The position numbers and the translations under genes were made by a program. From NCBI GenBank assembly GCA_012031415.1, contig JAAUTN010000022.1, positions 1 through 37,186 of the forward strand: a stretch of 37,186 nt of DNA. The letters run 5' to 3'. The stretch is from Leptolyngbyaceae cyanobacterium SM1_4_3 (GTDB lineage: Bacteria > Cyanobacteriota > Cyanobacteriia > Elainellales > Elainellaceae). Shown here piece by piece: positions 4,446-31,115 of this stretch. Position 1 is the first letter of the stretch; every line of letters begins with the position of its first letter. Below the pieces are notes generated by a model. That model saw only the letters and a list, made by a program, of their open reading frames with translations. It ran no database searches and was not told the origin of the DNA.

Positions 4446-4844
4446 GTGAGTATTGTTGGTCATGGAATCGATATTGTTGAGATTGCTAGATTCAAAGCAA
4501 CCTTGGATAGAAAGCAGAGCCAGTTCGAGTCTCAATGCTTCACAGCCTTGGAATGTCAAATTGCAGATGAGGCAGGTGTGAATCGCGTTGCCTGTCTTGC
4601 AGGTCGGTTTGCTGCTAAGGAAGCAGTACTCAAAGCTCTAGGGACGGGATGGAGCCAAGGTATTGCATGGACAGACGTGGAAATCCAGAGACTAGAGACC
4701 GGATGCCCAAGTGTGGCGTTATACGCAAAAGCTAAGGAAATAGCTAATCAGCTTGGTATTGATACATGGCTTATAAGTATCAGCCATGAAGAGTCCTATG
4801 CAGTGGCAAGCGCGATCGCTGTCGGCTCCAATTTAGTGTCGTAG
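4446..4844 (+). CDS. acpS: Holo-[acyl-carrier-protein] synthase (AcpS-type phosphopantetheinyl transferase)
   Basis: AcpS moves 4'-phosphopantetheine from coenzyme A to the conserved serine of an acyl carrier protein. The 132-residue length is typical. The N-terminus GHGIDIVEIARF carries the Mg2+-binding Asp, and GRFAAKEAVLKALGTG is the family's second hallmark with the metal/CoA-binding Glu-Lys. The C-terminal ISISHEESYAVASAI is also standard. Start is GTG at 4446, with GAGGAAGG just upstream. It stands alone after the conjugation genes, about 190 bp before a gene for an ACP-like protein, so a dedicated carrier partner is likely. Cyanobacteria were long thought to rely mainly on Sfp-type transferases, which makes an AcpS on an accessory element notable. 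Confidence 0.9.
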   Translation: MSIVGHGIDIVEIARFKATLDRKQSQFESQCFTALECQIADEAGVNRVACLAGRFAAKEAVLKALGTGWSQGIAWTDVEIQRLETGCPSVALYAKAKEIANQLGIDTWLISISHEESYAVASAIAVGSNLVS

Positions 4845-4881
4845 GTATTCTCCTGCGCTGAATACCAAATTCGACTTTGGG

Positions 4882-4921
4882 TTGACACCTGACGTTCAAA
4901 TTGGTAAGATTATCTTACCAA
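4882..4921 (+). promoter_or_regulatory. Promoter with -10 embedded in a perfect inverted repeat (candidate XRE operator)
   Basis: A consensus -35 TTGACA lies at 4882-4887, followed by a 17-base spacer and a -10-like TAAGAT at 4905-4910. The -10 sits inside an inverted repeat at 4901-4921 with perfect 10-base arms (TTGGTAAGAT / ATCTTACCAA) around one central base. A repressor bound here would block polymerase directly. The site precedes the ACP-like gene and its XRE-regulator partner, so autoregulation by that regulator is the simplest reading. The sequence is directly visible; the binding protein is inferred. Confidence 0.75.
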
Positions 4922-5035
4922 ATACAAAAATAAATGTTACCATTAATGAAGTGAGCCAATTGTGTATATGTTCAGAGCAGTAAGATTTTATTTCCAAATT
5001 TGGTACGTTTGTATTACAATAATGGAAGCCAGATA

Positions 5036-5323
5036 ATGAATCTAGAAACAGTAAAGTCTGCTCTTATAGGTGTCGTTAAGGACATTCAACGATTCGGTGG
5101 ACATGATGAATCTAAAGTTTCAGGAGGTGTATATCCTGTGAAGGATCTCCCAAGCTTCGATAGCCAGATCTGTATCGAGGCAATGAGTATGCTCTCCAGT
5201 TCGTTAGGTATAGAAATTCCGCTTGATAGGAATATTTTTGCTACTGAGGATAAGAAACGACTGCTGACAATAGATGAAGCATCGGTTGTAGTCTATGAAG
5301 GATTGAGTAAAGGAGAAAAATGA
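5036..5323 (+). CDS. Acyl-carrier-protein-like small protein
   Basis: A 95-residue protein from the ATG at 5036, which has GGAAG eight bases upstream; an in-frame GTG at 5000 has no such signal. It reads like an ACP: a first amphipathic helix (ETVKSALIGVVKDIQ), a loop, then DLPSFDSQICIEAMSMLSS, where DS matches the DSL phosphopantetheine-attachment motif at the start of helix II, then LGIEIP, which parallels the EIP end of ACP helix II, and a C-terminal helix LTIDEASVVVYEGL. The motif is unusual: FDSQ instead of G/A-DSL. The upstream AcpS could modify this serine. The gene overlaps the XRE gene by 4 bp (ATGA). The ACP call is my own pattern match; a domain search could overturn it. Confidence 0.6.
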   Translation: MNLETVKSALIGVVKDIQRFGGHDESKVSGGVYPVKDLPSFDSQICIEAMSMLSSSLGIEIPLDRNIFATEDKKRLLTIDEASVVVYEGLSKGEK

Positions 5324-5667
5324 TGTCTGAAACACCCGATGTCAGGGCAACCATTGCAGAACGAATTCGTAAGGCAAGAGAGATGGCAGGGCTGTCCCAA
5401 GGACAAGCAGCTAAAATGCTTGGACTTCATCGACCTTCAATCACAGAAGCAGAAGCTGGTAATCGAAAGGTGTCTGCTGAGGAGATTACTAAGTTTGCAG
5501 AGCTATACAAGGTAGACATGTCTTGGTTATTGGGTGAGGGTGAAGATCAAATAGATCCCAATGACAGTAAACTCCTACTTGCAGCGCGGAATATGAAAAA
5601 ACTCAAACCGGAAGAACTCGATGTGGTTTTAGCAGTTATAGCTTCCATCCGTGGTGGGAGAAAATAG
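5320..5667 (+). CDS. XRE-family helix-turn-helix transcriptional regulator
   Basis: A 115-residue protein with a Cro/C1-type HTH at about residues 12-66: IAERIRKAREMAGLSQGQAA, then a recognition helix around LHRPSITEAEAGNRKVS. A short C-terminal tail (LKPEELDVVLAVI) resembles the dimerisation tail of phage and ICE repressors. The ATG at 5320 overlaps the preceding stop; the next codon is also ATG (5323) and is better spaced from AGGAG, so either may be used. It is followed 2 bp later by an ImmA/IrrE-type peptidase gene, the classic ImmR-ImmA arrangement in which the peptidase cleaves the repressor on a stress signal. Its likely target is the inverted repeat at 4901-4921. Confidence 0.88.
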   Translation: MMSETPDVRATIAERIRKAREMAGLSQGQAAKMLGLHRPSITEAEAGNRKVSAEEITKFAELYKVDMSWLLGEGEDQIDPNDSKLLLAARNMKKLKPEELDVVLAVIASIRGGRK

Positions 5668-5669
5668 TT

Positions 5670-6536
5670 ATGGAGTCGCGGGAAATTCTGGCTGGACAGG
5701 CGCTCAATAAAGCTTTGGAAATAAGGAGAAAATTGAACATTCAAGCAAATTTTCCACTTGATATTTATAGCGCTTGTGAGCAATTAGACATAACAGTTCA
5801 ATTTGTTGCTATTCCTAGTGGTGAAGGAATGTATTGGCATGAGGATGGTGAAGCAAGAATATTGGTTTCGGCTCATCGCCCTCTTCCACGCAAGGTCTTC
5901 ACATGTGGGCATGAACTAGGACATCACCTTTTTGATCATGGTTCCACAATAGACGAATTAGAAGAATCTATAAGAAGGAGTCGGTTTGATCCTAAAGAAT
6001 TCTTAGTTGATTGTTTCTCCGGTTTTTTTCTGATGCCTAAACTAGCTGTTCAGAGTGCATTTAGCTCCCGGAATTGGACTCCAGCAACGGCTACGCCACT
6101 CCAAGTGTTTACTATTGCTTGCAGCTTTGGTGTTGGATATAGCACTCTAATTGATCATATGACTTACGCTCTTAAACTGATCACAGAGACTAAGGCTAAA
6201 GAATTGAAAAAATCCAGTCCCAAAAACATTCGTCAAGGGCTGTTTGGAGAGCTATCGACTAATCCTCTTATGGTTGTAGATGAGCAATGGCTACTTAAGA
6301 CAGTTGATGTTGAAGTTGGCTACCAGATTTTATTACCCAAAACGGTGCAAATAGAGGGTGATATCGTTAGCTTTCAAACAGATACCAAATATGGAAGACT
6401 TTTTCAAGCTGATCATTCGGGGCTTGCGCGTGCTTATTGTCCTGGAATGAATTGGGCAGTCAACATTAGAGTATCTCGATTTGAATATGTAGGTCTCAGT
6501 GCATATCGACATTTTGGAGAATGTGATGATGAGTAG
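5670..6536 (+). CDS. ImmA/IrrE-family metallopeptidase
   Basis: A 288-residue protein with the zinc-peptidase motif HELGHH at residues 81-86 and a downstream acidic helix (EFLVDCFSGFFLMP) that supplies the further ligand and the FLMP phrase typical of this family. ImmA and IrrE/DdrO-type peptidases cleave an XRE repressor to switch on an element or a damage response. Residues after about 180 form an extra C-terminal domain of unknown role. It lies 2 bp after the XRE gene and overlaps the next gene by about 11 bp, so it is part of the same transcription unit as the nucleotide-enzyme genes. Regulation of the whole cluster by XRE-ImmA is inferred from this linkage. Confidence 0.88.
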   Translation: MESREILAGQALNKALEIRRKLNIQANFPLDIYSACEQLDITVQFVAIPSGEGMYWHEDGEARILVSAHRPLPRKVFTCGHELGHHLFDHGSTIDELEESIRRSRFDPKEFLVDCFSGFFLMPKLAVQSAFSSRNWTPATATPLQVFTIACSFGVGYSTLIDHMTYALKLITETKAKELKKSSPKNIRQGLFGELSTNPLMVVDEQWLLKTVDVEVGYQILLPKTVQIEGDIVSFQTDTKYGRLFQADHSGLARAYCPGMNWAVNIRVSRFEYVGLSAYRHFGECDDE

Positions 6537-7338
6537 CAATCCACCATTAGTTATTGAATCGACGAATCTTTCATATGCTTGGAGAGATCTATTTCTGCGG
6601 ATTCTTGAAGGATCTGGTAAAGAAATCTCTAGCCTAATAGTTAGTCTGTCCGGATTCAACAGTGGTGTTCCCAATGAAGATTCAAATATTCGAGAAGCTT
6701 TAGATCAGTGCCTTTTGGCTACCGAAAAGCAACCAATCCATACAGTTGCTAATACAATATTTCCGGAAAATCTTTGGCGATTGTACAAGAATGATCGGAG
6801 ACAATTCTTTGAGAGATATATTGATAACCTTCCTAGGATTAAAGCTTTAGCACCACACAAGAACTGCAAAGGTCTTTACTTTGAGCGTCTCACAGCATTC
6901 GGTTGTGATGTTGCCAATGGAAACCAGCTTGAGCATATTATTTCAAGTTATAACTCGAACAAGAGTGTCAGGCGTACAATGCTTCAGGCATCTATTTTTG
7001 ATCCAGATCGAGATCATACCTCTTCCGCCCAACTCGGCTTTCCTTGCCTTCAGCACTTGCAATTTATACCTGACAACCGCAACAAAACACTTTCTGTTAA
7101 TGCCTTCTATGCGACTCAGCAGATTTTTGAGAAAGCGTATGGCAATTATCTAGGAATTTGCAGACTAAGTCACTTTATGGCTTATGAAATGAATCTTTCT
7201 CTGGACAGGGTAAATTTTTATATTGGAGTTGCTAAGTTTGACACTCTTCCAAAGAGTACGCAAGAGATTGTAGAGCTACAGAAAAAGATTCAACAAGTGC
7301 TAAACCCCCTCCATGGAAACCTAAAAGATAGGAATTAG
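6526..7338 (+). CDS. Divergent thymidylate-synthase-fold protein (possible nucleotide hydroxymethylase)
   Basis: A 270-residue protein; ATG at 6526 is chosen for its GGAG six bases upstream (6529 is also possible). The C-terminal half aligns by eye with ThyA: SVRRTMLQASIFDP matches the Arg-Arg segment that contacts the nucleotide phosphate from the other subunit, GFPCLQHLQF matches the PPC active-site segment with catalytic Cys (C174), and a following helix carries a GN like the ThyA Asn. The RSxD phosphate-binding motif after the catalytic strand and the GDxHxY segment are not recognisable (positions read ATQQ and GVAKFD). So this is a remote ThyA relative, perhaps a dUMP hydroxymethylase-like enzyme, with substrate unknown. 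It sits 3 bp before the thymidylate-kinase fusion gene. Confidence 0.6.
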   Translation: MMSSNPPLVIESTNLSYAWRDLFLRILEGSGKEISSLIVSLSGFNSGVPNEDSNIREALDQCLLATEKQPIHTVANTIFPENLWRLYKNDRRQFFERYIDNLPRIKALAPHKNCKGLYFERLTAFGCDVANGNQLEHIISSYNSNKSVRRTMLQASIFDPDRDHTSSAQLGFPCLQHLQFIPDNRNKTLSVNAFYATQQIFEKAYGNYLGICRLSHFMAYEMNLSLDRVNFYIGVAKFDTLPKSTQEIVELQKKIQQVLNPLHGNLKDRN

Positions 7339-7341
7339 ACG

Positions 7342-9117
7342 ATGCCGAAAAAGAAATTCAAGCAGGGCAAACTTATTATCTTTGAGGGACCAGATGGAGT
7401 AGGAAAAACAACAATCTCCCAAAAGCTCGCAGAGTATCTCAATGCTAATGGTGAAACTTGTAAATTAATGACTTTTCCAGGAAAGGAGCTAGGAACGCTT
7501 GGCGCATTGATTTATGAACTTCATCATGATTCATTGCGATACGGAGTTGAAACATTTACACCTACAAGTAAACAGGTTCTTCATATTGCTGCTCACCTAG
7601 ACACGATTGAGCGTTGTATTTTGCCGGCCTTAGAAACAGGTTTTCATGTTGTGCTTGACCGATTTTGGTGGTCTACCTGGGTTTATGGTCTGACTTCTAG
7701 TGTTAATCGCCAAGTTCTCGAAAAGATGATTGATCTTGAGAAATCATACTGGGGAGATGTTAAACCAGAAGTTGCTATTTTGCTACGTAGAGATACTCCA
7801 ATTAATCGTGAAGTATCCCTTCAAGACTGGAGAAAGTTAAGTTACGAATATGATACATTAGCGGCTAAAGAGAAGACTTCCTATCCTGTATCTGTTTTAA
7901 GGAATGATACAGATCTAGAAACAACCCTTCAGCAAGTTAGAGAAGTTCTTGAATGTGCGCTGAACTCTCCTGAACCTCTGAACGATCAGCAAGATTCTTT
8001 TGAACAGGGGCAATTAGGACTGGATCTGGAGCAAGGGAGAAAAACTAATTTTTTTAACCCGATTGTTATTTCACACATCTTACCTGCAAAACCGACTGTT
8101 GTATTTGACACCTATTGGCGCTTTGCTGTTGAGAGACAGAATATTTTCTTCCGTAAGCTTCGTGGGCAGCCTCAGCCTTGGACCGATGATCCTATTCTTG
8201 CTACCTTCAAGTTTACTAATGCCTACAGAGCCTCTGATCGGGTAAGTCAGTACTTAATTCGCCATGTAATTTACCGGGATGATCTGCCATCCTCTCTTGA
8301 GGAAGTTTTTTTTCGGATAATTCTGTTTAAACTCTTCAACAAGATAGAAACTTGGCAGCTTTTAGAAAAGAGTATTGGAGAAATTATTTATGGCGAATAC
8401 TCTTTTGATCAATATGACCGAGTGTTGACTCAAGCAATGCAGGCAGGTCAATCAGTTTATTCTGCTGCCTACATTATGCCTTCAGGAGGAAAATCGTTTG
8501 GGTACGCTGTAAAACATCGCAACCATTTAAAACTGATTGAGCAGATGATTGCTGATGAATTACCAAAGAAGCTGGCAGATGCCCCCAGTATGCACCAGGC
8601 ATTTCATCTAATACGCGCTTACCCAACGATCGGTGATTTTCTGGCATACCAGTTTGTGACTGATGTCAACTACAGCGAGATCACCGACTTTAGCGAAATG
8701 GATTTTGTAGTTCCGGGACCTGGCGCACTAGATGGAATTCGTAAATGCTTTGCTGACCGAGGAGGACTTAATGAGCCAGAAATCATCAAGTTTATGACCG
8801 AACGACAGGAAGCAGAGTTTAAGCGGTTAGGTCTAGACTTTCAATCTCTTTGGGGAAGGCCATTACAACTGATTGATTGCCAAAATCTATTTTGTGAGGT
8901 TGATAAGTATTCGCGGGTTTATCATCCAACAGTTGCCGGGATCTCTGGTCGAACCCGAATTAAACAGAAATATACGTCAGTTTCTCAGCCAATTGGTTAC
9001 TGGTATCCACCTAAATGGAATATCAATCAATTTATCACCAGTAATGATGCTGAATTGAAGGCAGAAGCAGTTACACAGGATCGTACATGCAAATCTAAAA
9101 AGTTAAAACAGGAGTGA
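7342..9117 (+). CDS. Thymidylate-kinase-like domain fused to a 5-hmdU DNA kinase-type helical domain
   Basis: A 591-residue two-domain protein. Residues 10-210 are a thymidylate-kinase-type P-loop kinase: FEGPDGVGKTT with Walker A Lys22, DRFWWSTW at 106 in place of the DRY/DRH motif, and a C-terminal lid-like region. After a polar linker (about 211-230), residues 235-575 match the helical domain of 5-hydroxymethyl-dU DNA kinases and alpha-glutamyl/putrescinyl-thymine pyrophosphorylases: VFDTYWRFAVERQ, then WTDDPIL from W280, FKFTNAYRASDRVSQYL, and later DFLAYQFVTDVNY and VPGPGALDGI. In phages such proteins phosphorylate hydroxymethyluracil in DNA and replace the phosphate with larger groups. 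Fusion to a TMK-like kinase could couple hmdUMP or DNA phosphorylation. Recalled from family sequence style, not from a search. Confidence 0.75.
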   Translation: MPKKKFKQGKLIIFEGPDGVGKTTISQKLAEYLNANGETCKLMTFPGKELGTLGALIYELHHDSLRYGVETFTPTSKQVLHIAAHLDTIERCILPALETGFHVVLDRFWWSTWVYGLTSSVNRQVLEKMIDLEKSYWGDVKPEVAILLRRDTPINREVSLQDWRKLSYEYDTLAAKEKTSYPVSVLRNDTDLETTLQQVREVLECALNSPEPLNDQQDSFEQGQLGLDLEQGRKTNFFNPIVISHILPAKPTVVFDTYWRFAVERQNIFFRKLRGQPQPWTDDPILATFKFTNAYRASDRVSQYLIRHVIYRDDLPSSLEEVFFRIILFKLFNKIETWQLLEKSIGEIIYGEYSFDQYDRVLTQAMQAGQSVYSAAYIMPSGGKSFGYAVKHRNHLKLIEQMIADELPKKLADAPSMHQAFHLIRAYPTIGDFLAYQFVTDVNYSEITDFSEMDFVVPGPGALDGIRKCFADRGGLNEPEIIKFMTERQEAEFKRLGLDFQSLWGRPLQLIDCQNLFCEVDKYSRVYHPTVAGISGRTRIKQKYTSVSQPIGYWYPPKWNINQFITSNDAELKAEAVTQDRTCKSKKLKQE

Positions 9118-9120
9118 AAG

Positions 9121-10077
9121 ATGGATTTTTGCGAGTATCAGGAGCAAGCTATCCAGACAGGGCAGGCTCTTCAAAATGCTGACGGCATGGATATTGCAAT
9201 TCTTGGGGTAGTCGGCGAAATTGGTTCTCTATCAAGTGAGTATAAAAAGCTCTTGCGCGATGGCGAATCTCACCGATTGTTTCCAGAGCGTATTGCAGAG
9301 GAACTTGGCGATATTCTCTGGTATCTCGCCGCCTTTGCCAACAAATTTGGATTGGATCTAAATACGATCGCTGAACAGAATCTTGAGAAATGTCGTGATC
9401 GCTGGGGTTGGCGCAATGCTCAAAGCAGAGAATGTGTTGCTTTTGCGTTTGACAATGGTTCACCAGAACAGGAACGTCTTCCGAGAGAATTTGAGGTAGA
9501 AATTACCGAGCTTGATCAGAATGGTTCAACTAAAATGCAAGCCTTTGTCAATGGGAAGCAGATGGGCAATGATTTGACTGACAATTCTTATGTCAGCGAT
9601 GGCTATCGCTTTCACGACATTTTTCACTTGTCTTATGCCGCTATTCTTGGGTGGTCTCCTGTTGTTCGCCAAATGCTGGGATGCAAGCGCAAAAGCCATC
9701 CCAAAATCGACGAGGTAGAAGATGGAGGTCGAGCAAAAGCTATTGAAGAAGGAATTTCGGCGCTTGTTTTTCGTTACGCTCAAGATCATGAGTTCCTTGA
9801 AGGGTTAACAGAACTGGATTATGAGTTGCTGAAAACAGTCAGAAATTTGACCTCCGGTTTAGAAGTATCTCAACGATCACTTAACGATTGGGAAAAAGCA
9901 ATTTTGGCTGGTTATGAAGTATGGCGGCAGGTGAATCAAAACGGGGGTGGAATAGTCTTGGTCGATCTGAATGCCTGTTCTATTACCTATTGCCCGAGTG
10001 GAGTAAAACCAAAATCCAAGACAGCGAAGGCTATAAGTCATCCTACAATTCTTTACTCTAATCAGAAGTGTGGATGA
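9121..10077 (+). CDS. MazG-type nucleotide pyrophosphohydrolase with C-terminal HDxxxH domain
   Basis: A 318-residue protein, ATG three bases after the kinase fusion stop and preceded by AGGAG. Residues 1-100 are an all-alpha MazG-like NTP pyrophosphohydrolase: GEIGSLSSEYKK from about 32 and EELGDILWYLA from 60 give the Glu/Asp metal cage (E60, E61, D64). MazG enzymes hydrolyse NTPs or dNTPs to monophosphates. Residues about 140-240 form a second domain with FHDIFHLSYAAILGWSP (H165, D166, H169) and EVEDGGRAKAIEEG, probably another metal-binding helical domain of unknown function. In this operon it could clear competing dNTPs or an unwanted intermediate, as phage dTTPases do. The tail after residue 275 has no visible feature. 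Confidence 0.82.
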   Translation: MDFCEYQEQAIQTGQALQNADGMDIAILGVVGEIGSLSSEYKKLLRDGESHRLFPERIAEELGDILWYLAAFANKFGLDLNTIAEQNLEKCRDRWGWRNAQSRECVAFAFDNGSPEQERLPREFEVEITELDQNGSTKMQAFVNGKQMGNDLTDNSYVSDGYRFHDIFHLSYAAILGWSPVVRQMLGCKRKSHPKIDEVEDGGRAKAIEEGISALVFRYAQDHEFLEGLTELDYELLKTVRNLTSGLEVSQRSLNDWEKAILAGYEVWRQVNQNGGGIVLVDLNACSITYCPSGVKPKSKTAKAISHPTILYSNQKCG

Positions 10078-10120: not shown

Positions 10121-10942
10121 ATGAAAAAGCCTTGGCTACCTTTTTCTAGCTACAACTTGTGGTCTTTATTTGCAGCACCTATCGGACAAGAACAGTGGCA
10201 CTGTGACATGAAGCGCGGTTTTGCAAAAGTCCGCAAAAAGCAACCAGAGGTTACAGCAATCCTCGCAGAAGATACAGCACCTCAAAGAGTTGGTCTGCTG
10301 GCACAAAGAGGAATTTATGAGTTTCATCAAAATACTCATCTTCTAAAGAGCGTGGATGGAGTTACAAAAGTAGGGGTTATTTTGCAATTAGATAAAGAGA
10401 ATCCTGATGTTCAGGCTCGGATGCTCAATATCTTAACCAGCTATTATGAGAACCCCATTCTGTTACAAAGAAGAATTTTTAGCTTAAGTCGCGGTGATGA
10501 AGGGTTCCCAGAGCCAATCAAGCTTTACTACGGAAACACAGCATTTAACTTGTTTGCTGCGATCGATTGCATTCTGATCGAACCTGATGGAACGTTACAC
10601 ATCCTAGATTTCAAGACAGGCAAATCCGATTTTGATGAACGACAGGCGTTTGTTTATCTGCTGGCAGCCAGCTATCTGTTTCCCCGTCAACGAGCGATCG
10701 CCTCATTCTATAACCTTGAGCTTTGCAAGTGGTCCGAACCCATCATGGCAACTGCCAGCCAATTAAATGCTATTCGCATTGAACTAGCGCGGTTGGCTCA
10801 ACGACATGAGATGGAGAAAAAGCAGTACCGCAAGAATCCTGCGGAGTTCGATCGCATCTTCCCACCTAACCCTGGTTTTCGATGTCAACACTGCCAATTC
10901 AACTCAGTTTGTAAATTTGCTGTTCAGGAGATCTCTGCATGA
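10121..10942 (+). CDS. Cas4/RecB-like PD-(D/E)XK nuclease associated with Argonaute
   Basis: A 273-residue protein. The nuclease core is visible: D149 in AAIDCILIEPDG, then ILDFKTGK with D163 and K165, followed by a DERQAFVYLLAASYLF helix carrying the conserved Gln-Tyr region of RecB/Cas4 nucleases. A C-terminal cluster CQHCQFNSVC (C255, C258, C264) with an upstream Cys28 matches the 4Fe-4S cluster arrangement of Cas4/AddB-type nucleases. Its last four bases overlap the Argonaute start (ATGA), so the two are translated together; Cas4-like nucleases are recurrent neighbours of long prokaryotic Argonautes. It may process DNA ends for guide generation or degrade target DNA. A 43 bp gap separates it from the MazG gene. 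Confidence 0.88.
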   Translation: MKKPWLPFSSYNLWSLFAAPIGQEQWHCDMKRGFAKVRKKQPEVTAILAEDTAPQRVGLLAQRGIYEFHQNTHLLKSVDGVTKVGVILQLDKENPDVQARMLNILTSYYENPILLQRRIFSLSRGDEGFPEPIKLYYGNTAFNLFAAIDCILIEPDGTLHILDFKTGKSDFDERQAFVYLLAASYLFPRQRAIASFYNLELCKWSEPIMATASQLNAIRIELARLAQRHEMEKKQYRKNPAEFDRIFPPNPGFRCQHCQFNSVCKFAVQEISA

Positions 10943-13148
10943 CTGCTGTTACTGCTGCGCCCACACAGGAATTTGTTTTTCTCAGTGAAGTGTTTCCATT
11001 GTCGATCGTCCAATCTAACCTTGCCTGTTACGAGGTGATGCCTGAGATCGATCAAGAAACTGGTAATCGCTTGAGCTTTCATCTCTCGCGGAAATTGGAA
11101 GATGCTATGGTTGTCTGGCATGAGCGACGATTGTGGGTACTCACTCCAAACCAGCGACCTCAACCGACTCTATCGCGGTGTCAGGCGGTGCTCTCAGCCA
11201 CGCAGCAAAATATTCCTGACTTGTGTGATCAACCTCTCCAGCTTCAGGGTGATGATGCTAGAAATGCAACACCAACCGTTTTTTCCAAGCTTGCGTTCAG
11301 ATTTTGAGAATTAAGCAGCCCTTCAAACCTATCCTGATTACGTCAATTGCAGGATTAGCCGTGAATCGCAAAGTTAAATTCTGGGCAGAAACGATCGAGT
11401 TTCAAGCAGAAATTCGTCCAGCAGTGACGATAGCCATTCACACTGAAATCGCGTTTTCAGGAAGTTTAGCAGACTTCTACGCCAGCAATGTAACACAGGG
11501 AAGCCCAGAAGATGTTTTGATCGGCCTACCCGTTCAGGACTTTGATATGGGTAGCAGCGGCAGCATTGTCCGGTTGATTGGCACCATGCAGGAGCATCGA
11601 GATCGCCTTCTGAAACTGGCTGCGGGTGGAATTACACGCCATGCGATTCAAACTGCGCCAGATGATCAGATTGTGGCGGCAATTCAATTTGGCAAGGGGA
11701 AAAAATTGTTTCACTATCCACTCTCTGCCCTTCGCCCCTCGATCACGGCTGAAACGGCTGGTCAGTTTGGATTCGACTATAGACAGTTTTTGCGACTCAC
11801 AAAAATCCCTCACGCAGAGCGACAGCGGTTGCTGACAACCTTCAAGGCGCAAGCACTGGAGGTGTTGCTCAAATACGGCTTTGAAATCGGACGAAGCCTA
11901 AACAGTTTGGAGCATCCTGATCTCTTTTGGCAACCAACCATTCCTCTGGATCAAACTCCACTGCTATTCGGTCAAGGAGTAACGGGCGTTCGAGGGCGCA
12001 TTCTGCACGGGCTGTCAACGGGTGGTGTCTACAATCGTCATCCAAATTTTCATCCTGGCATTATTCGGATTGCTGCTCTTAAACTCTGTGACAGTAGCGT
12101 TAATGCTTTCCTAGAAGCGGTTCAGCAACGGTTAAGGCGCTATGGGTTTGAGAGCGAAATTATTGATCGTAAACCGTTATCCATTGTTAATCTAAGTGCT
12201 GCTGAAGCAAGAGCCGCATTGGAAAAGGCAGTCAATAAGCTGATCACTGTTCCAGTCGATATTGTGTTGACCTTTTTGCCACAGAGTGATCGCGAAGCTG
12301 ATGACGATGATGGCGGTAGTCTTTATCATCTTGTTTACTCACTGCTCTTGCGTCGCAACATTGCTAGTCAAGTCATTTATGATGACACGCTAACCCAGGT
12401 TGAGCATGGGCAGATCCTTAATCAAGTTGTTCCAGGGGTGTTGGCAAAATTAGGGAATTTGCCTTTCATCCTGGCGGAACCCTTGGAAATTGCGGATTAT
12501 TTTATTGGATTAGATATCTCGCGATCGCCAAAAGCCAGGCTTGCTGGAACCTTGAATGCCTGTGCCAGTGTTCGACTCTATGGTAAGCAAGGAGAGTTTA
12601 TTCGCTACGTCTTGGAAGATGCCCTGCTGGAAGGCGAAGAAATTCCTCAGCGGCTGCTAGAACGATTGCTACCAGCGACTCTGGAAGACAAAACAGTTCT
12701 AATTTATCGCGATGGACGATTCTGCGGTCAGGAAGTACCCCACTTGTTGGAGCGGGCACGAGCAATTCGAGCAAGATTTATCTTGGTAGAGTGCCGAAAA
12801 TCTGGCATTCCGAGGCTCTATAACTTAAGCCAGAAAACTTTGGTTGCGCCCTTGCAGGGTCTAGCCTTGCGACTATCTTCTCGTGAAGCTGTACTCGTGA
12901 CAACTCAAGTCTCTGAGCGAGTAGGATTAGCACGCCCCTTGCGTTTGACCGTTCATGAAGCTGGAGAACCCGCACCTATTGAGCAAGTGGTAGAAACTAC
13001 ACTGAAACTCACGTTGTTGCATCATGGGGCACTAAAAGCACCGCGTTTACCCCTGCCAATTTATGGCGCAGATCGAGTGGCTGGCTTGCGGTTACAAGGT
13101 ATTTACCCCAGCAGTTTGCTTGAGGGCGATCGTCAGTTCTGGTTGTAA
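10939..13148 (+). pseudogene. Long prokaryotic Argonaute (pAgo), one frameshift between N-terminal part and the rest
   Basis: Two reading frames encode one long pAgo of about 737 residues. The first (10939-11307, 122 residues) is the N domain; the second, read from about 11262 and open through 13148, holds linker/PAZ region, MID and PIWI. In the second piece, numbered from 11304, the PIWI catalytic residues are present: D404 in YFIGLDISR, a Glu near 443-446 (EGEEIP), D470 in LIYRDGRF and D590 in YGADRVAG, a DEDD tetrad expected of a nucleic-acid-guided slicer. MID is seen at NIASQVIYDDTL. The frame changes by minus one between 11262 and 11304; restoring one T in the T6 run at 11279-11284 or near 11296 joins the parts. 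It is either a decayed gene or an assembly error. Confidence 0.85.
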
Positions 13149-13877: not shown

Positions 13878-14419
13878 CACAGCTTGACCTCCGGATAAAG
13901 GGGGCAGGGTCGAATTGGGCAGTTTTGGGGATGCAGTTCAACCGAGGAGCGGAAGCGTTCTACCTTGATCCCACTATGCTGCGAAAATACATCCAGAATC
14001 CGCACGAGCAAAGTTTTAACCTGCAATTCGGTCAGTCCCAAACAGTGCACGGGTTCAACTTTGGCAACCCGATCGTTCCCCATCCACAGTTCTGCACCCA
14101 AAGCATGGAGCGGTGAGTCCTTTGTGACTCGATACCAGTGAACCACAGCAGCAGGCACCGCCGGAGCCAGTACCTCTAATGTCGCTACTCGTACTACCCC
14201 AGAAACTTTAGGTTCTGATGATAAAGGTTCAGTTTGCTGTCCGCGTCGTCGTTGTTTGCGGACATGGTTCCGGACTCCCCGGTGGCGATAGTAGGAACGG
14301 CGATTATGGCAAACCTTTGGATTCCAGCACCCGTCTCCATCCGATCCATGACGTTGTTGGGCTTCTTGGGAGTCCAGCTTGGAGCAAAGCCGACATTTTT
14401 CCTGATCGGGACGTGCCAT
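13877..14419 (-). CDS. Cys-rich, Arg-rich small protein, putative zinc-binding
   Basis: A 180-residue protein from ATG at 14419, with GAGG six bases upstream. Its N-terminal 50 residues hold four Cys in CRLC and GCWNPKVC spacing, surrounded by His and Arg (YYRHRGVRNHVRKQRRRG), which suggests a zinc-binding, nucleic-acid-contacting head. The remaining part, from about residue 75, is a small globular domain with further Cys near the C-terminus (CPIRPCP). Start and stop codons are shared by one base with the genes on either side, so the three form an operon. Not recognised as a known family. Confidence 0.65.
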   Translation of the reverse strand: MARPDQEKCRLCSKLDSQEAQQRHGSDGDGCWNPKVCHNRRSYYRHRGVRNHVRKQRRRGQQTEPLSSEPKVSGVVRVATLEVLAPAVPAAVVHWYRVTKDSPLHALGAELWMGNDRVAKVEPVHCLGLTELQVKTLLVRILDVFSQHSGIKVERFRSSVELHPQNCPIRPCPLYPEVKL

Positions 14420-15216
14420 CACGCACCTCGGAGGGGGGCAAGTAACTCATCGACCCATTGTTGATCAGCCTCCGATAGCTTGGGCGGTGGTACAGGCTGA
14501 CGATAGTCGATGCGATCGTTGTATCCTGCCCGATCGCACACGCCCTGCACAATTGCCTGTAATTCTATCAGCGGCTCCTCATCTTCGGGTCTTAGCGGCA
14601 ACGGCACACTGGGAATAGGTTCACGCAAGTCAAAGTCATACAGGTCGGCTTGAGGACGTTGTGCACTACGACTCACAATGAGGCGATAGTCACTCGGCTG
14701 CACCTCTCCGATCATCGTCATTGGGATGCCAGCCCGGATCAGATCAATTTCAACTAGATTGGAGAGACTGCCCAAAATTCGCCTGCGCTTGTTTTCATAA
14801 GCCGTTCTGCCTTTTCCCTTCTGCTTGTTTTTGGGTGACAGCACCTCAATCACTGTGATGACCGTATCCGTGCCGACTTCGCGAACTTCGAGATAGCGCT
14901 CTTTAATGGTGGTTGGCTGGGGCAAGAGAATGGAGCGGGGTTGTTTCTGAGTTAACGTTGCACCCGATTCAACTCGCAGCGGCTCCAATTGATCGATTGA
15001 CCGAGCCGATAAGACAGCGGCATCTGGAATCCCCACAAGGATTTCTTCTGGCTCTTCTTGATCCTGGTAGGTGCGAGTCTCAACCTCAATGTAGTAGTTG
15101 GGGCGCAGTTGGGGCGCTATCGTATCGGCGATCGCCACCATCAGCCGGGTGTGAAACGACGACCAGAAGGCTGGCTGTTCCAGGTAGGGATTCATGCCAG
15201 GGAAGGGCGATAGCAT
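14419..15216 (-). CDS. DUF4058 family protein
   Basis: A 265-residue protein beginning MLSPFPGMNPYLE, the hallmark N-terminus of DUF4058, a family very common in cyanobacteria and planctomycetes. The start at 15216 is chosen for this motif and for GGGAG eight bases upstream; a GTG at 15231 would add five residues. Further family features are the FHTRLMVAIADTIAPQLRPNYY segment and a core with VITVIEVLSPKNKQKGKGR, which resembles a PD-(D/E)XK-type fold (E-V-L-S-P...K). Biochemical role unknown. It is the first gene of the reverse-strand operon and is divergent from the tyrosine recombinase. Confidence 0.88.
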   Translation of the reverse strand: MLSPFPGMNPYLEQPAFWSSFHTRLMVAIADTIAPQLRPNYYIEVETRTYQDQEEPEEILVGIPDAAVLSARSIDQLEPLRVESGATLTQKQPRSILLPQPTTIKERYLEVREVGTDTVITVIEVLSPKNKQKGKGRTAYENKRRRILGSLSNLVEIDLIRAGIPMTMIGEVQPSDYRLIVSRSAQRPQADLYDFDLREPIPSVPLPLRPEDEEPLIELQAIVQGVCDRAGYNDRIDYRQPVPPPKLSEADQQWVDELLAPLRGA

Positions 15217-15274
15217 CCGTGAAACTCCCACAGTGCAAGGATTTTCATTCAGTATACCCTAACCTCTCTGAACC

Positions 15275-15293: not shown

Positions 15294-15370
15294 TAAAAGA
15301 TATTGTATAAATATTTTACTTAAAATGCCCTAAACTGAAAGAGCCAACTTGAGTTGTGGGGTCATTACTC

Positions 15371-16471
15371 ATGTTTTCAGGCTCAGATGGGCTTCCCTCG
15401 ATTCGCCTGGTTGCTTCCCAATCTCCAGTACCATCCCGCTCAACGGGACCGACGGATTTGCGTTGGCTCCGAGTCGAGGAGTATTTTCAGGCTCGGTCGC
15501 TGGCTGATAACACTCAAAAAGCCTATCGACGTGAATTGAAACGGTTTCTCACCTGGACGGATCGCGCCTGGTCAGATCTCACCCCTCGCCAGATTGCCCA
15601 GTTCAAAGCCTATTTGCAGGGGCAAAACCTCTCTCCCAATTCCATTAACCGGGCGTTGACCGCTCTGATGAGTTTCTTTGATTGGTTTCGAGCAGCTTAC
15701 CCGGAGCAAATTGCCCATGACCCGACGACAGCCGTAGAGATGGAGCGGGTTCCTTTGCCCCCAGCCAGGGACTTATCGGCAATTGAAGTTACGGCGCTAT
15801 ACCTGGCATTGGAGGAACGAGGAGAAACGGAGGTACGCGATCGCGCATTACTAGCCGTACTAGGTCATGGTCTGCGCGCAGAAGAGGTCGTGAATTTGAA
15901 TGTAGAAGACTACGATGGTGTACGGTTAACGATTCGAGAAGCCAAGGATGACAGTACGGGCACAGTCCCGCTTAGCCGTCAGGCGCGAGAACAGTTGAAC
16001 ACGTATTTAGTTCAGCGTCGCTCTGAGGAGGGAGACTTATCGCCTGATAGCCCCCTGTTTTTGTCTATTGGGCGCAACCGGGTGGGTCAGCGTTTGGGCT
16101 ATCAAGGGCTATACTACGCAGTTAAAGCTTTGGGTAAAATTGCCGCAGAGCAGGCTCAATTAGCATTAGAGCGGCGGCAAAGAATTGAGCAAGGAGAGCT
16201 AGAACCTGATCTGCAGGATAGATGGGGTAGATGGGGACAGTTTAATGAGGGAGAACTCAAACAAATCCTGACTTTGGTGAATGTGCATCCTCACCAGTTA
16301 CGCCACACCTTTGCGACTGGGCTGCTTTTGCGGGGGGTCGAGAGCCTTCATGCTCGAACACTAACCCGTCATAAATCAGAGGCCAGCTTTAAGCGATATG
16401 CCAAGCGAGCACTTAGTGCGGCGGCAGAACGGGCATTCTATCAATCTATTGGTGAAAACGCACCAGAATAA
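15371..16471 (+). CDS. Tyrosine recombinase (XerC/XerD-like integrase)
   Basis: A 366-residue protein from ATG at 15371; an in-frame GTG at 15356 would add five residues. It has a SAM-like N-terminal core-binding domain (TQKAYRRELKRFLTWT, then LSPNSINRALTALMSFFDWF) and a C-terminal catalytic domain. Catalytic residues visible are R169 in GHGLRAEE, H308 and R311 in HPHQLRHTFA, a His in LTRHKS and nucleophile Tyr343 in FKRYAK. An insertion of about 45 residues rich in Gln, Glu and Arg (EQAQLALERRQRIEQGELE) sits between the Lys strand and HxxR. It may resolve multimers of a plasmid or integrate the element. It precedes the ParA/ParB genes on the same strand. Confidence 0.93.
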   Translation: MFSGSDGLPSIRLVASQSPVPSRSTGPTDLRWLRVEEYFQARSLADNTQKAYRRELKRFLTWTDRAWSDLTPRQIAQFKAYLQGQNLSPNSINRALTALMSFFDWFRAAYPEQIAHDPTTAVEMERVPLPPARDLSAIEVTALYLALEERGETEVRDRALLAVLGHGLRAEEVVNLNVEDYDGVRLTIREAKDDSTGTVPLSRQAREQLNTYLVQRRSEEGDLSPDSPLFLSIGRNRVGQRLGYQGLYYAVKALGKIAAEQAQLALERRQRIEQGELEPDLQDRWGRWGQFNEGELKQILTLVNVHPHQLRHTFATGLLLRGVESLHARTLTRHKSEASFKRYAKRALSAAAERAFYQSIGENAPE

Positions 16472-16574: not shown

Positions 16575-17174
16575 ATGATCGTTACTACCGCATCATTTAA
16601 GGGCGGTGTGGGCAAGACTACGACAGCTGTTCATGTTGCTGCATTTTTGCAGAAAGATGGCGATACCTTGCTAGTGGATGGTGATCCAAATCGTTCTGCA
16701 ACTCGTTGGTCTAGGCGGGGAAATGGATTCCCATTTAAAGTTGTGAGTGAGCAGCAAGCAGCAAAGTACGGCAGAAACTTTAAGCACATTGTCATTGACA
16801 CCCAAGCCCGCCCCGACGAAGAAGATTTGAAAGACTTGGTAGACGGATGCGATATCCTGATTCTTCCCTCTACACCCGATGTTTTGTCATTAGATGCATT
16901 AATGCAGACCGTTCATTTAATGAAGGCTTTGGGGTCTGGGCAATATCAAGTTCTACTGACTCGTGTGCCGCCTCCACCTCGGAAAGATGGAGATGATGCT
17001 AGGGAAATGCTTTCTGCCGCAGGTTTTCCTTTATTCAAGGGCAGAGTTCGTGAATTAGTGGCATTTCAGAAAGCAGCATTAGAAGGCTTGGTAGTCAGTG
17101 ATGTTAGCGATCGCCGTGCCAAGCTTGCTTGGAATGACTATGTAGCAATTGGACGGGAGATTTTGAATGGGTAA
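16575..17174 (+). CDS. parA: ParA-family partition ATPase
   Basis: A 199-residue MinD/ParA-type ATPase. The deviant Walker A KGGVGKTTT lies at residues 9-17 with signature Lys9 and Lys14; LLVDGDPNRSAT is the switch I/Walker A' region and HIVIDTQA the Walker B strand. It is short, with no N-terminal HTH, like type Ib plasmid ParA proteins. It drives segregation of the replicon together with ParB bound at parS. Its end overlaps the parB start by 8 bp. Its presence argues that this DNA is, or derives from, a plasmid or a plasmid-like integrative element. Confidence 0.92.
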   Translation: MIVTTASFKGGVGKTTTAVHVAAFLQKDGDTLLVDGDPNRSATRWSRRGNGFPFKVVSEQQAAKYGRNFKHIVIDTQARPDEEDLKDLVDGCDILILPSTPDVLSLDALMQTVHLMKALGSGQYQVLLTRVPPPPRKDGDDAREMLSAAGFPLFKGRVRELVAFQKAALEGLVVSDVSDRRAKLAWNDYVAIGREILNG

Positions 17175-18653: not shown

Positions 18654-20702
18654 ATGACTTTTAAGGAAAAACAATTAGCGTCGCCCGATGTTGAAGATGT
18701 TGAGGATGGCAAGGAAGATTCCGGCTTGGCGGATGGCTATGTGCTGGATTTTATTAGTGGCGAGAAGCGGCTGAAAGATACTTCCAAGGAACAGGTTCGG
18801 CAGCGAATTGCACGGGCGCTTTTTCATGAATATGGAATTTCAGTTGAAGACATGGAGGGTGACTTCTCTGTTTCGATCAGTGGAAAGCGCAAGAAGCTGG
18901 ACATTGCCATTTTTCATCATGGAAGTTCCCATACGATAGAGAATCTGAGTCGGGTTGTCGTCTGTCGCCAAGAGCCAAAGGTGGGCAGAAACACAGCGAG
19001 ACTGAGAGATTATGAGCAGGCAGACAAAGACTTGGAAGAACTGAAGACCATTATGGAGGGGATCGAATCCTGCAATTTTGGGCTTTGGACTAATGGGTTG
19101 GAATTCTTTTACCTGGAGAAGCAGGTTAAGCGGTTTGAGGTGCGGTTTGAGCCGATCGGCGATTGGCCCCCTACCGAAGAGTCAATGGGGACTCGCGATG
19201 TTGCCTCGATCGCTCGAACGCGGCAAGCTGATCCAGAGATGCTGCGAATCGCGTTCCGGCGTTGTCATAACTTTATTCATGGGAATGAAGGGATGCCAAA
19301 GGATGCTGCATTTTGGCAGTTCCTCTATTTAATCTTCTGCAAGATGCACGATGAGCAGCAAGCAGTAAAGGGGCAGCCTCGTCGGTTCTGGGCAGGACCT
19401 AAAGAGCAGTTTGATCCGGATGGGCGGCGGGAGATTCGGCGGCGGATTGAGCCACTGTTTGAAGAAGTGAAAGACGAGTACAAAGATCTGTTTCGGGGAA
19501 ATGAGGAAATTACTCTATCCGATCGCGCTCTTGCTTTCATGGTGTCTGAGCTAGCCAAGTATGACTTTACCCGCACAGATGTGGATGCGAAGGGAGGAGC
19601 CTACCAAGAAATTGTAGGAACTAACCTGCGGGGCGATCGCGGACAGTACTTTACCCCTAGAGGGGTGATTCGACTGGCAGTGCAAATTCTTGATCCTAAG
19701 GAGAACGAGCGGATTCTTGACCCTGCTTGTGGAACAGGAGGTTTTTTGGTGGCGGTGCTGTCTTATATGATGGCGAAATTTCGGGCTGAGGAGGATGTGA
19801 TCGCGGGGGTGGAGTCTACAGAGGAGTTTCTCTCAATTAACGAGCGATTGAGAAAGTTTGCTCAGAGCCAGATTTTCGGAGCAGATTTTGACCAGTTTTT
19901 GATCAGAGCCTCTCAAATGAATATGGTGATGGCGGGGGATGGTCGAGGACATCTCTATCATCTCAATTCACTGGAGTTTCCGAGTGGCTATTTAGATGGG
20001 CTAAAGCGGGCGAAGGAGGAAATCCAGCTAGGGACGATGGATGTGGTGTTGACCAATCCGCCTTTTGGCTCTGATATCCCAATCACTGATCAAAATATTT
20101 TGAACCAATATGAGTTGGCGCAGGTCTGGGAAAAGACGGAAGATGGAGAGTTTCGCCGGACGGGTAAGAAGCAAAGCAGCGTCGCTCCAGAGATTTTATT
20201 TATTGAGCGATGTTTGAAATGGCTCAAACCCGGTGGACGAATGGGTATTGTATTACCTGATGGAATCTTGGGTAATCCGGCGGCAGAGTATATCCGCTGG
20301 TGGATTTTGCGGCATAGCTGGGTGCTTGCCAGTGTAGATTTACCTGTAGAAGCGTTCATTGTGGAAGCGAATGTCAATATTTTGACGAGTTTGCTATTTC
20401 TAAAGCGGAAAACGACGGAGGAGATCCGGGCGGAGGATTTGGGTGGGAAGGTCGATTACCCGGTGTTTATGGCGGTGGCTGAGAAGGTTGGTTATGACCG
20501 ACGAGGAAATACACTTTACAAGCGGAAGCCAGATGGAGAGGAGATTATTGAAGTGCGAGAGCGGAAGGAGCGGATTAGAGTTGGAGGACGAGTGATTGAG
20601 CGCGATCTAAAGCGGAAGGAGAAAATTCTGGATGATGATCTACCTGAGATTCATAAGAAATATCTAGAGTTTCGCCAAAGGTATCCAGAGCCAGGAAAGT
20701 AA
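18654..20702 (+). CDS. HsdM-like adenine-N6 DNA methyltransferase, MAD2-like (MADS)
   Basis: A 682-residue protein with an N-terminal segment of about 180 residues resembling a restriction-type R-M N domain (including KLDIAIFHHG, a strand like those of HSDR_N), a helical HsdM N-domain (about 190-310), then the catalytic domain: DPACGTGGFLVA from residue 356 (motif I, AdoMet binding) and NPPFGSD from 468 (motif IV, catalytic). YFTPRGVIRLAVQIL is the standard HsdM motif X region. It should methylate adenine in sequences chosen by the downstream HsdS-like subunit, marking self DNA. Its C-terminus is highly charged (RKERIRVGGRVIERDLKRKEK). Confidence 0.93.
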   Translation: MTFKEKQLASPDVEDVEDGKEDSGLADGYVLDFISGEKRLKDTSKEQVRQRIARALFHEYGISVEDMEGDFSVSISGKRKKLDIAIFHHGSSHTIENLSRVVVCRQEPKVGRNTARLRDYEQADKDLEELKTIMEGIESCNFGLWTNGLEFFYLEKQVKRFEVRFEPIGDWPPTEESMGTRDVASIARTRQADPEMLRIAFRRCHNFIHGNEGMPKDAAFWQFLYLIFCKMHDEQQAVKGQPRRFWAGPKEQFDPDGRREIRRRIEPLFEEVKDEYKDLFRGNEEITLSDRALAFMVSELAKYDFTRTDVDAKGGAYQEIVGTNLRGDRGQYFTPRGVIRLAVQILDPKENERILDPACGTGGFLVAVLSYMMAKFRAEEDVIAGVESTEEFLSINERLRKFAQSQIFGADFDQFLIRASQMNMVMAGDGRGHLYHLNSLEFPSGYLDGLKRAKEEIQLGTMDVVLTNPPFGSDIPITDQNILNQYELAQVWEKTEDGEFRRTGKKQSSVAPEILFIERCLKWLKPGGRMGIVLPDGILGNPAAEYIRWWILRHSWVLASVDLPVEAFIVEANVNILTSLLFLKRKTTEEIRAEDLGGKVDYPVFMAVAEKVGYDRRGNTLYKRKPDGEEIIEVRERKERIRVGGRVIERDLKRKEKILDDDLPEIHKKYLEFRQRYPEPGK

Positions 20703-20718
20703 TGCTATCTAGAAAATT

Positions 20719-24274: not shown

Positions 24275-24388
24275 CTTGGTGAGCGTAGAATTCAATTTTT
24301 CAGTAAACTTTGAATCTAGGTAAAACCTTCATTCTTCATTACTGATGGGTGGAACAGGCGGTTGGGTATAGTCGATCGCCATATTGTT

Positions 24389-25090: not shown

Positions 25091-25307
25091 AAGCCTGAAA
25101 CAAGAAGGTAGTTCTAAGATAGCCCGATCAAGTTGCTGCGTATACGTCGTAAAGTGCTTGTGATACACCGTGCCTCTTGCCGCTTCCTTTTATTTTATGT
25201 CTTTCGCTTCATAACTATTGGCACTTTTCAACCGCAATGGCTAAGATCCAACGGGGCAGTATGGCATGGGTTAGCAACAGGCAGGCAAGAAGCGGTTAAT
25301 TTTCTGA

Positions 25308-31112: not shown

Positions 31113-31115
31113 ACC

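What the first reader, a model, noticed from the sequence alone, without database searches (positions are those of the whole stretch)
4446..10077. Candidate undescribed nucleotide/DNA-modification system: AcpS, ACP-like, XRE-ImmA, ThyA-like, TMK-HMUDK fusion, MazG
Seven co-directed genes, tightly packed or overlapping from 5036 on, combine (a) a divergent ThyA-fold enzyme with catalytic Cys, (b) a thymidylate-kinase-like domain fused to the helical domain used by phage 5-hmdU DNA kinases, (c) a MazG pyrophosphohydrolase with an extra domain, (d) a phosphopantetheinyl transferase with an ACP-like protein, and (e) XRE-ImmA control. In phages that replace thymine, a ThyA homologue makes hmdUMP, a kinase raises it to triphosphate, a dTTPase removes dTTP, and a DNA kinase primes hypermodification. 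Finding an analogous set on a bacterial accessory element, with a possible carrier protein that could deliver an acyl or aminoacyl group, suggests host DNA hypermodification or a modified-nucleotide defence. I know of no described system with this composition.
Basis: partly seen in the sequence, partly recalled or inferred. Interest (0 to 1): 0.93.

Follow-up and report, generated by a model that had tools for sequence, protein, structure and literature searches.

The report
Inducible pyrimidine/DNA modification operon, carrier-protein linked
A plasmid-type stretch of a cyanobacterial genome carries a self-regulated set of enzymes that probably makes or handles a modified thymine-like building block of DNA; the same gene set, with the same control site, recurs in at least ten bacterial phyla, so it is a real and apparently undescribed system, probably for defence against phages or other invading DNA.

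Summary
Window 4446-10077 holds seven intact co-directed genes: AcpS, a true acyl-carrier protein, XRE, ImmA, a divergent ThyA-fold enzyme (ThyAL), a thymidylate kinase fused to an HMUDK_hel domain, and MazG+MazG_C. ACP-XRE-ImmA-ThyAL-HMUDK recurs in the same order in at least ten phyla. Of 82 loci with ThyAL, 80 have ImmA and XRE and 79 have ACP. A palindrome, GTAAG-N5-CTTAC, lies just upstream of ACP in 59 of 70 type-A loci, nowhere else in those loci, and once in this 7.8-Mb genome: the likely XRE operator. Predicted structures confirm the ThyA fold (nearest: pyrimidine-nucleotide hydroxylases and hydroxymethylases) and the thymidylate-kinase domain. The host uses ThyX and has its own thymidylate kinase, so this is not housekeeping. 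A related enzyme set (TS, dNMP kinase, 5-hmdU kinase, NMAD domains) was validated as anti-phage in E. coli in 2026, so the theme is known; the ACP-XRE-ImmA-ThyAL core I could not find described. Best explanation: an ImmA-switched, replication-coupled pyrimidine/DNA base-modification defence. The chemistry and the ACP cargo are unknown; a signalling nucleotide or plasmid self-protection remain possible.

The parts
4446..4844 (+). AcpS-type phosphopantetheinyl transferase dedicated to the cluster
   Evidence: PF01648 1e-16, TIGR00516 3e-25. AcpS present in 33 of 59 full-context loci. The host has other PPTase-family genes elsewhere, C352 and C509
4904..4918 (.). Palindromic operator GTAAGATTATCTTAC (arms extend to TTGGTAAGAT-T-ATCTTACCAA)
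   Evidence: Same GTAAG-N5-CTTAC upstream of ACP in 59 of 70 type-A loci, none elsewhere in those loci; single site in the whole genome with up to 1 mismatch
5036..5323 (+). Acyl-carrier-protein-like protein; Ppant attachment Ser43 (codon 5162-5164)
   Evidence: Ser43 invariant in 33 relatives at 19% mean identity; family profile finds PDB acyl carrier proteins at 5.5e-6; 7 of 33 members hit PF00550
5320..5667 (+). XRE repressor, CapH-like
   Evidence: HTH_3 2e-13; PADLOC capH 7e-13
5670..6536 (+). ImmA/IrrE-type metalloprotease, CapP-like, HExxH present
   Evidence: PF06114 1e-9; PADLOC capP 3e-15; HExxH in 94 of 94 relatives
6529..7338 (+). ThyAL: divergent thymidylate-synthase-fold enzyme; Cys173 (7045-7047), Asn206 (7144-7146)
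   Evidence: Model pLDDT 91, pTM 0.90; VIA Z 17.4 phage dCMP hydroxylase AfhB, 17.1 MilA, about 14.5 ThyA; invariant Cys and Asn; active-site comparison
7369..7965 (+). Thymidylate-kinase domain of the fusion protein
   Evidence: PF02223 1e-16; VIA Z 24.3, rmsd 1.6-1.8 to Aquifex TMK
8011..8028 (+). Linker motif QLGLDL, resembling a sliding-clamp-binding motif (inference)
   Evidence: Motif class in 13 of 41 representatives vs 2.0 expected from shuffled linkers
8098..8937 (+). HMUDK_hel domain (helical domain named after phage 5-hmdU DNA kinase)
   Evidence: PF18723 3e-114; whole protein's best viral structure match is SP10 5-hmdU DNA kinase, 2.6e-17
9121..10077 (+). MazG pyrophosphohydrolase with MazG_C domain
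   Evidence: PF03819 9e-6 and PF18722 3e-80; EELGD motif in 63 of 65 relatives

Best explanation
A horizontally spread, self-repressed operon that on demand produces and handles a C5-modified uracil/thymine deoxynucleotide and acts on DNA, most likely as defence against phage or other invading DNA. Proposed working: XRE binds the GTAAG-N5-CTTAC operator and keeps the operon off. A trigger, plausibly ssDNA or DNA damage as for CapP/CapH, activates ImmA, which cleaves XRE. AcpS arms the carrier protein with phosphopantetheine. ThyAL attacks C6 of a uracil-type base through its Cys and transfers a group to C5, plausibly one held on the carrier protein. The TMK domain raises the product towards the triphosphate. 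MazG_C (or, in other loci, a canonical TS and a dCTP deaminase) adjusts the pool. The HMUDK_hel domain, perhaps held at the replication clamp, acts on the base in new DNA. Shown here: gene content, folds, conserved catalytic residues, conserved order, operator conservation. Inferred: trigger, substrate, carrier cargo, product, DNA as end target, defence outcome.
For: Conserved order ACP-XRE-ImmA-ThyAL-HMUDK in at least ten phyla. Operator conserved across phyla and unique in this genome. TS fold closest to pyrimidine hydroxylase/hydroxymethylases. TMK domain. HMUDK_hel shared with phages that carry TS plus a kinase fusion, or TS plus glycosyltransferases. Clamp-motif enrichment in HMUDK linkers. 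Accessory partners dCTP deaminase, canonical TS, UDG, radical SAM and TIR+Nmad2 all fit pyrimidine/DNA chemistry or immunity. Window neighbours are a split pAgo with a Cas4-like nuclease and a MADS system. TS, 5-hmdU kinase, dNMP kinase and NMAD domains occur in systems validated as anti-phage (PMC13092281).
Against: No chemistry was tested. No carrier-loading enzyme (adenylation or acyltransferase) was seen in the operon, so the cargo is a guess. ThyAL lacks Glu58, essential in known TS enzymes. HMUDK_hel has no sequence match to any solved structure and its own catalytic role is unknown. A subtype lacks TMK and HMUDK altogether. The clamp motif is absent from two thirds of representatives. 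Flank enrichment for defence genes was weak.
Confidence: 0.42

Rival explanations
1. Nucleotide-signalling immunity: ThyAL/TS, TMK and dCTP deaminase make a non-canonical deoxynucleotide that works as a second messenger sensed by a partner (Nmad2, HMUDK_hel or MazG_C), with NAD-consuming or other effectors such as the ThsB-like TIR. MazG_C is the off-switch. It works like Kongming, where dITP is the messenger.
For: Kongming precedent (PMC12948488). ThsB-TIR plus Nmad2 pairs lie in some loci. TMK acts on free mononucleotides. MazG is a nucleotide hydrolase.
Against: TIR/Nmad2 is in only 5-6 of 59 full-context loci; no constant effector gene. HMUDK_hel belongs with phage DNA-modification genes, and clamp-like motifs point to DNA.
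Confidence: 0.2
2. ACP-XRE-ImmA-ThyAL is a sensing and control module, not a biosynthetic one. ThyAL is a repurposed TS fold that binds a phage-modified or unbalanced pyrimidine nucleotide and, with the carrier protein, licenses ImmA to cleave XRE; the downstream enzymes (HMUDK, MazG_C, UDG) then act on phage DNA or pools.
For: The four-gene module is constant while the downstream enzymes change (HMUDK+MazG_C, HMUDK+TS, or UDG+MazG_C with an added C1 peptidase). ThyAL has lost several catalytic TS residues.
Against: The catalytic Cys and the Asn are kept in nearly all members (97 and 98 of 100), which a pure sensor would not need; a dedicated AcpS argues for a working carrier.
Confidence: 0.2
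3. Self-protection of the mobile element: the plasmid modifies its own DNA at replication to escape host restriction, as hypermodified phages do, and XRE-ImmA switches this on upon entry or transfer.
For: 13 of 19 ThyAL-bearing plasmids are predicted conjugative; T4SS genes lie next to the cluster here; phage hypermodification is anti-restriction (PMC6449724).
Against: Some cyanobacterial copies lie on a single 5-Mb contig, i.e. a chromosome (G002). Neighbours are defence systems rather than only transfer genes.
Confidence: 0.13
4. Unspecific metabolic cargo: genes for thymidylate or lipid metabolism thrown together on a plasmid.
For: Each gene has a metabolic relative.
Against: Order and operator conserved across phyla. 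The host already has ThyX, TMK and other PPTases. All 7 cyanobacterial genomes with ThyAL also have HMUDK, against 17 of 386 overall.
Confidence: 0.03

Closest known systems
DefensePredictor validated E. coli system(s) with TS, dNMP kinase, 5-hmdU DNA kinase and NMAD domains (PMC13092281, Science 2026)
   Same: Thymidylate-synthase, dNMP-kinase and HMUDK-type domains in bacterial anti-phage systems; the same paper predicts MazG, MazG_C, aGPT-Pplase and UDG as defensive
   Different: The paper's main text mentions no acyl carrier protein; ACP-XRE-ImmA-ThyAL control/core not reported. Which domains share one operon could not be read from the text held. It probably corresponds to the TMK-HMUDK-TS-TIR-Nmad2 arrangement seen in L036, L038 and L068 (inference)
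Phage thymine hypermodification (SP10, PhiW-14, M6, ViI): TS homologue, P-loop-HMUDK_hel 5-hmdU DNA kinase
   Same: HMUDK_hel domain, fusion to a kinase, TS-family partner, pool-adjusting nucleotide enzymes
   Different: Kinase domain here is TMK, not the phage P-loop kinase; ThyAL is not found in phage records; carrier protein and XRE-ImmA are added
CapH/CapP (XRE repressor plus ImmA-like protease) control of CBASS; ImmR/ImmA of ICEs
   Same: Adjacent XRE and HExxH protease, best PADLOC matches capH and capP; dedicated operator
   Different: Controls a nucleotide/DNA-modifying operon; an ACP gene precedes XRE in nearly all loci
Pyrimidine-nucleotide hydroxymethylase MilA and phage dCMP hydroxylase AfhB (TS fold)
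   Same: Nearest solved structures to ThyAL (Z 17)
   Different: ThyAL 12-14% identical; lost residues kept in MilA; substrate unknown
Kongming (dITP second messenger)
   Same: Deoxynucleotide chemistry plus kinase in immunity; works-like candidate only
   Different: No KomA/B/C homologues were sought; substrate would be a pyrimidine

Membership tests
Phage 5-hmdU DNA kinase (P-loop kinase + HMUDK_hel) | HMUDK_hel helical domain | tested here: met
   PF18723 3e-114; SP10 5-hmdU DNA kinase is top viral structure match
Phage 5-hmdU DNA kinase (P-loop kinase + HMUDK_hel) | The phage-type P-loop kinase domain | tested here: not met
   N-terminal domain is thymidylate kinase (Z 24.3). The TMK model does not match the SBSphiC 636-aa homologue, whose P-loop is of another family
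Phage 5-hmdU DNA kinase (P-loop kinase + HMUDK_hel) | Phosphorylates 5-hmdU in DNA | not testable with these tools
   Needs enzyme assay
Thymidylate synthase / nucleotide hydroxymethylase superfamily | TS fold | tested here: met
   Foldseek 6e-9 and VIA Z 14-17; TIGR03283 9e-11
Thymidylate synthase / nucleotide hydroxymethylase superfamily | Catalytic Cys and pyrimidine-reading Asn | tested here: met
   Cys173 and Asn206 invariant in 40 relatives; PCL/QCL in 97 of 100
Thymidylate synthase proper | Glu58, Arg166, Asp169, His207/Tyr209 (E. coli numbers) | tested here: not met
   Variable or replaced in ThyAL of this subgroup; Arg166 and His207 kept in the C1-peptidase subgroup
Acyl carrier protein | Conserved Ppant Ser in a (D)S motif and ACP-like profile | tested here: met
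   Ser43 invariant in 33; ACPs found at 5.5e-6; canonical DSL in the sister subgroup
Acyl carrier protein | Is phosphopantetheinylated and carries a thioester cargo | not testable with these tools
   Needs intact-protein mass spectrometry
CapH/CapP-type control | XRE with adjacent HExxH protease and an operator at its own operon | tested here: met
CapH/CapP-type control | ssDNA-triggered cleavage of the repressor | not testable with these tools
   Precedent only (PMC10904395)
DefensePredictor TS/dNMPk/5hmdUk system | TS-, dNMP-kinase- and HMUDK-type domains together | tested here: met
   Met with ThyAL in place of canonical TS
DefensePredictor TS/dNMPk/5hmdUk system | NMAD domain | tested here: not met
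   None among the cluster genes; Nmad2 seen only in other loci
Anti-phage defence system | Reduces phage plating | not testable with these tools
   Needs phage challenge

The most novel reading that the evidence does not exclude
A categorically new immune chemistry: a carrier-protein-dependent TS-fold enzyme puts an acyl or other thioester-borne group on C5 of a uracil deoxynucleotide (or of uracil in DNA). The product is raised by a fused thymidylate kinase and written into, or processed in, replicating DNA by an HMUDK_hel domain held at the sliding clamp, all under an ImmA-released repressor whose operator is conserved across phyla.
Probability: 0.22. Interest if true: 0.95.

Novelty: new variant of a known kind. 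Interest (0 to 1): 0.8.

Why it matters
It shows that bacteria, not only phages, keep a widespread inducible toolkit for modified pyrimidines, and it links a phosphopantetheine carrier protein to nucleotide or DNA chemistry in a likely immune system, for which I found no precedent. It gives precise, testable handles: an operator, a carrier Ser, a ThyAL Cys, and a defined set of 80+ loci with subtypes whose exchanged parts (MazG_C for TS, HMUDK for UDG, TIR-Nmad2) constrain the pathway.

Tried and rejected
(1) E. coli version by nucleotide search with a Methylobacter HMUDK gene: no match, so the published E. coli operon could not be compared. (2) HMUDK_hel against PDB sequences: only chance matches; fold searches with the fused model were filled by thymidylate kinases, so the fold of the helical domain stays untested. 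The remembered idea that it is a HhH glycosylase-like domain is a lead only. (3) Defence-gene enrichment in flanks of cyanobacterial loci against random regions: more families in cases (70 vs 11), but many belong to a few proteins, the window's own among them, and protein counts were not resolvable, so not used as evidence. (4) ThyAL in phage records: none. In IMG/VR only 3 contigs carry ThyAL and 14 carry HMUDK relatives of this group, so it is not mainly a phage system. (5) Housekeeping role rejected: ThyX, TMK and other PPTases are elsewhere. (6) Iyer 2013 and Burroughs 2015, which probably discuss HMUDK, MazG_C and Nmad domains (partly recalled), were not held, so prior prediction of part of this operon cannot be excluded.
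Full report
What is there. Profile searches give AcpS, XRE, ImmA, thymidylate kinase plus HMUDK_hel (3e-114) and MazG plus MazG_C (3e-80). The two doubtful proteins hold up. The small protein at 5036-5323 belongs to a family with an invariant Ser across 33 members at 19% mean identity. Its profile finds acyl carrier proteins of the PDB at 5.5e-6 with that Ser on the phosphopantetheine Ser, and a sister subgroup has a canonical DSL motif. The ThyA-like protein (ThyAL) folds confidently (pLDDT 91, pTM 0.90) as a thymidylate synthase. Its best structural matches are phage dCMP hydroxylase AfhB (Z 17.4, 3.4 A over 204 residues) and CMP hydroxymethylase MilA (Z 17.1), with true ThyA at about 14.5.

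It is a conserved system. A tblastn of plasmids and their annotations show the same order in Nostoc, Allocoleopsis, Sinorhizobium and Rhizobium plasmids, and a rearranged version in Streptomyces. With profiles built from the window and plasmid proteins, ACP, XRE, ImmA, ThyAL and HMUDK recur in that order in Cyanobacteria, Acidobacteria, Chloroflexi, Planctomycetota, Verrucomicrobia, Bacteroidota, Calditrichota, Myxococcota, Deltaproteobacteria/Desulfobacterota and Proteobacteria. In 59 loci with full context: ACP 54, XRE 57, ImmA 57, ThyAL 57, MazG_C 39, a second canonical TS 21, AcpS 33, dCTP deaminase 22. Because these loci were ranked by likeness to the window's protein, the fractions describe this subfamily, not all HMUDK proteins. 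In the other direction, of 82 loci with ThyAL and enough upstream sequence, 80 have ImmA and XRE and 79 have the ACP by profile. Of the other three, L165 has an ACP with a DSL motif by eye, and L059 and L167 lack an adjacent ImmA and XRE. In a sample of 386 cyanobacterial genomes drawn evenly from the phylum, ThyAL is in 7, HMUDK in 17 and MazG_C in 12. All 7 ThyAL genomes have HMUDK, and 11 of the 12 MazG_C genomes do.

Control. A perfect palindrome, TTGGTAAGAT-T-ATCTTACCAA, lies between AcpS and the ACP gene (core 4904-4918). GTAAG-N5-CTTAC occurs at the same place in 59 of 70 loci of this type and nowhere else in those loci; it is absent in the 11 loci with the divergent ACP. In the 7.79-Mb genome it is the only site with up to one mismatch. 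XRE and ImmA are nearest to CapH and CapP of CBASS in the PADLOC library, and all 94 ImmA relatives have HExxH. CapP is activated by ssDNA to cleave CapH (PMC10904395). That this operon is switched on the same way is an inference.

Subtypes. (A) ACP-XRE-ImmA-ThyAL-(TMK-)HMUDK followed by MazG_C, as in the window. (A') the same with a canonical TS, sometimes with dCTP deaminase. MazG_C and the TS exclude each other in most loci: 36 with MazG_C only, 18 with TS only, 3 both, 2 neither. (B) plasmids with ACP-XRE-ImmA-C1 peptidase-ThyAL next to UDG, mostly with MazG_C, and without HMUDK. Other loci have HMUDK without the core: with TIR of the ThsB family and Nmad2 (L036, L038), with DUF1643-like, MazG_C and dCTP deaminase in Nostocaceae genomes, or with radical SAM. 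So the four-gene core is constant and the DNA/nucleotide enzymes are exchanged.

What the parts can do. ThyAL keeps the Cys nucleophile, the Asn that reads the pyrimidine, and an Arg pair in most subtype-A members. It lacks Glu58 and Asp169, and in the window's subgroup Arg166 and His207/Tyr209 (alignment). It is therefore not a working dTMP synthase by known rules, and a different donor or substrate is likely. The fused kinase is a thymidylate kinase by structure (Z 24.3). The architecture resembles phage 5-hmdU DNA kinase of SP10 (top viral structure match). But the related phage protein of SBSphiC has another P-loop kinase in front of the same helical domain, next to a TS gene, and phage LuckyBarnes has the helical domain alone beside TS and two glycosyltransferases. 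The helical domain thus travels with thymine modification, with or without a kinase. Linkers and tails of HMUDK proteins are enriched in QLxLxL-like motifs that resemble sliding-clamp-binding motifs: 13 of 41 representatives vs 2.0 expected; in the window QLGLDL at 8011-8028. In Erythrobacter the gene sits between dnaQ and dnaE. This points to action on new DNA but is not proof.

Housekeeping is excluded. The genome has no PF00303 ThyA, has ThyX on C343, a canonical TMK on C157 and other PPTase-family genes on C352 and C509.

Known and new. A 2026 study (PMC13092281) reports 5-hydroxymethyluracil kinase and thymidylate synthase domains newly validated in E. coli anti-phage systems. Its legend lists TS, dNMPk, 5hmdUk and NMAD together, and it predicts MazG, MazG_C, aGPT-Pplase and UDG as defensive. 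The kind of system is therefore known in outline. Its main text does not mention an acyl carrier protein, and none of my paper searches returned the ACP-XRE-ImmA-ThyAL core. Two likely sources of prior prediction (Iyer 2013, Burroughs 2015; recalled) were not readable here. I rate it a new variant of a known kind.

Mechanism and confidence. I favour an ImmA-released, carrier-protein-assisted pyrimidine/DNA modification defence (0.42). The main rivals are a Kongming-like signalling nucleotide (0.2; PMC12948488), a sensing role for the ACP-ThyAL core (0.2), and protection of the element's own DNA (0.13). What is shown is anatomy, folds, conserved catalytic residues and conserved linkage. Trigger, substrate, cargo, product and outcome are inferred.

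Noticed in passing
window 18654-36590: A MADS-type (methylation-associated) defence system: mad2-like MTase, an ATPase with weaker mad3 match, mad5-like specificity protein, mad6-like kinase, mad7 (3e-118) and mad8-like HerA ATPase, preceded by an XRE gene at 18174.
   Followed up: partly
window 10121-13148: Argonaute system directly after the cluster: Cas4-like nuclease (5e-134) and a pAgo class II split in two overlapping ORFs (10939-11307 and 11304-13148); whether the split is real or a frameshift is open.
   Followed up: partly
L105-L109: Second subtype on alphaproteobacterial plasmids: ACP (canonical DSL)-XRE-ImmA-C1 peptidase-ThyAL, next to a convergent uracil-DNA glycosylase (mostly with MazG_C), without TMK or HMUDK.
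   Followed up: partly
L036, L038, L068, L014, L009: HMUDK, TMK or MazG_C genes beside a ThsB-like TIR and Nmad2 pair, possibly the arrangement behind the published E. coli system.
   Followed up: partly
L163, L164: Nostocaceae genomes carry HMUDK, a DUF1643-like protein (by eye) and MazG_C (L163 also dCTP deaminase), without the ACP-XRE-ImmA-ThyAL core.
   Followed up: no
L012:7306-12676: In an Erythrobacter plasmid HMUDK lies between dnaQ and dnaE, suggesting coupling to a plasmid-borne DNA polymerase III.
   Followed up: no
L165:4624-5634 and L013:8960-9922: Radical SAM genes (L165 by eye) directly next to HMUDK, reminiscent of phage base hypermodification.
   Followed up: no
L186:2846-6861: Brevibacterium phage LuckyBarnes: long TS, two glycosyltransferases and a stand-alone HMUDK_hel gene in one row, a possible glycosylated 5-hmU phage.
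   Followed up: no
window 14419-15231 and 24389-25168: Two minus-strand proteins that look like the DUF4058 family (by eye), plus a tyrosine-recombinase-like gene 15356-16471 and a ParA-like gene 16575-17174: plasmid backbone pieces between defence systems.
   Followed up: no
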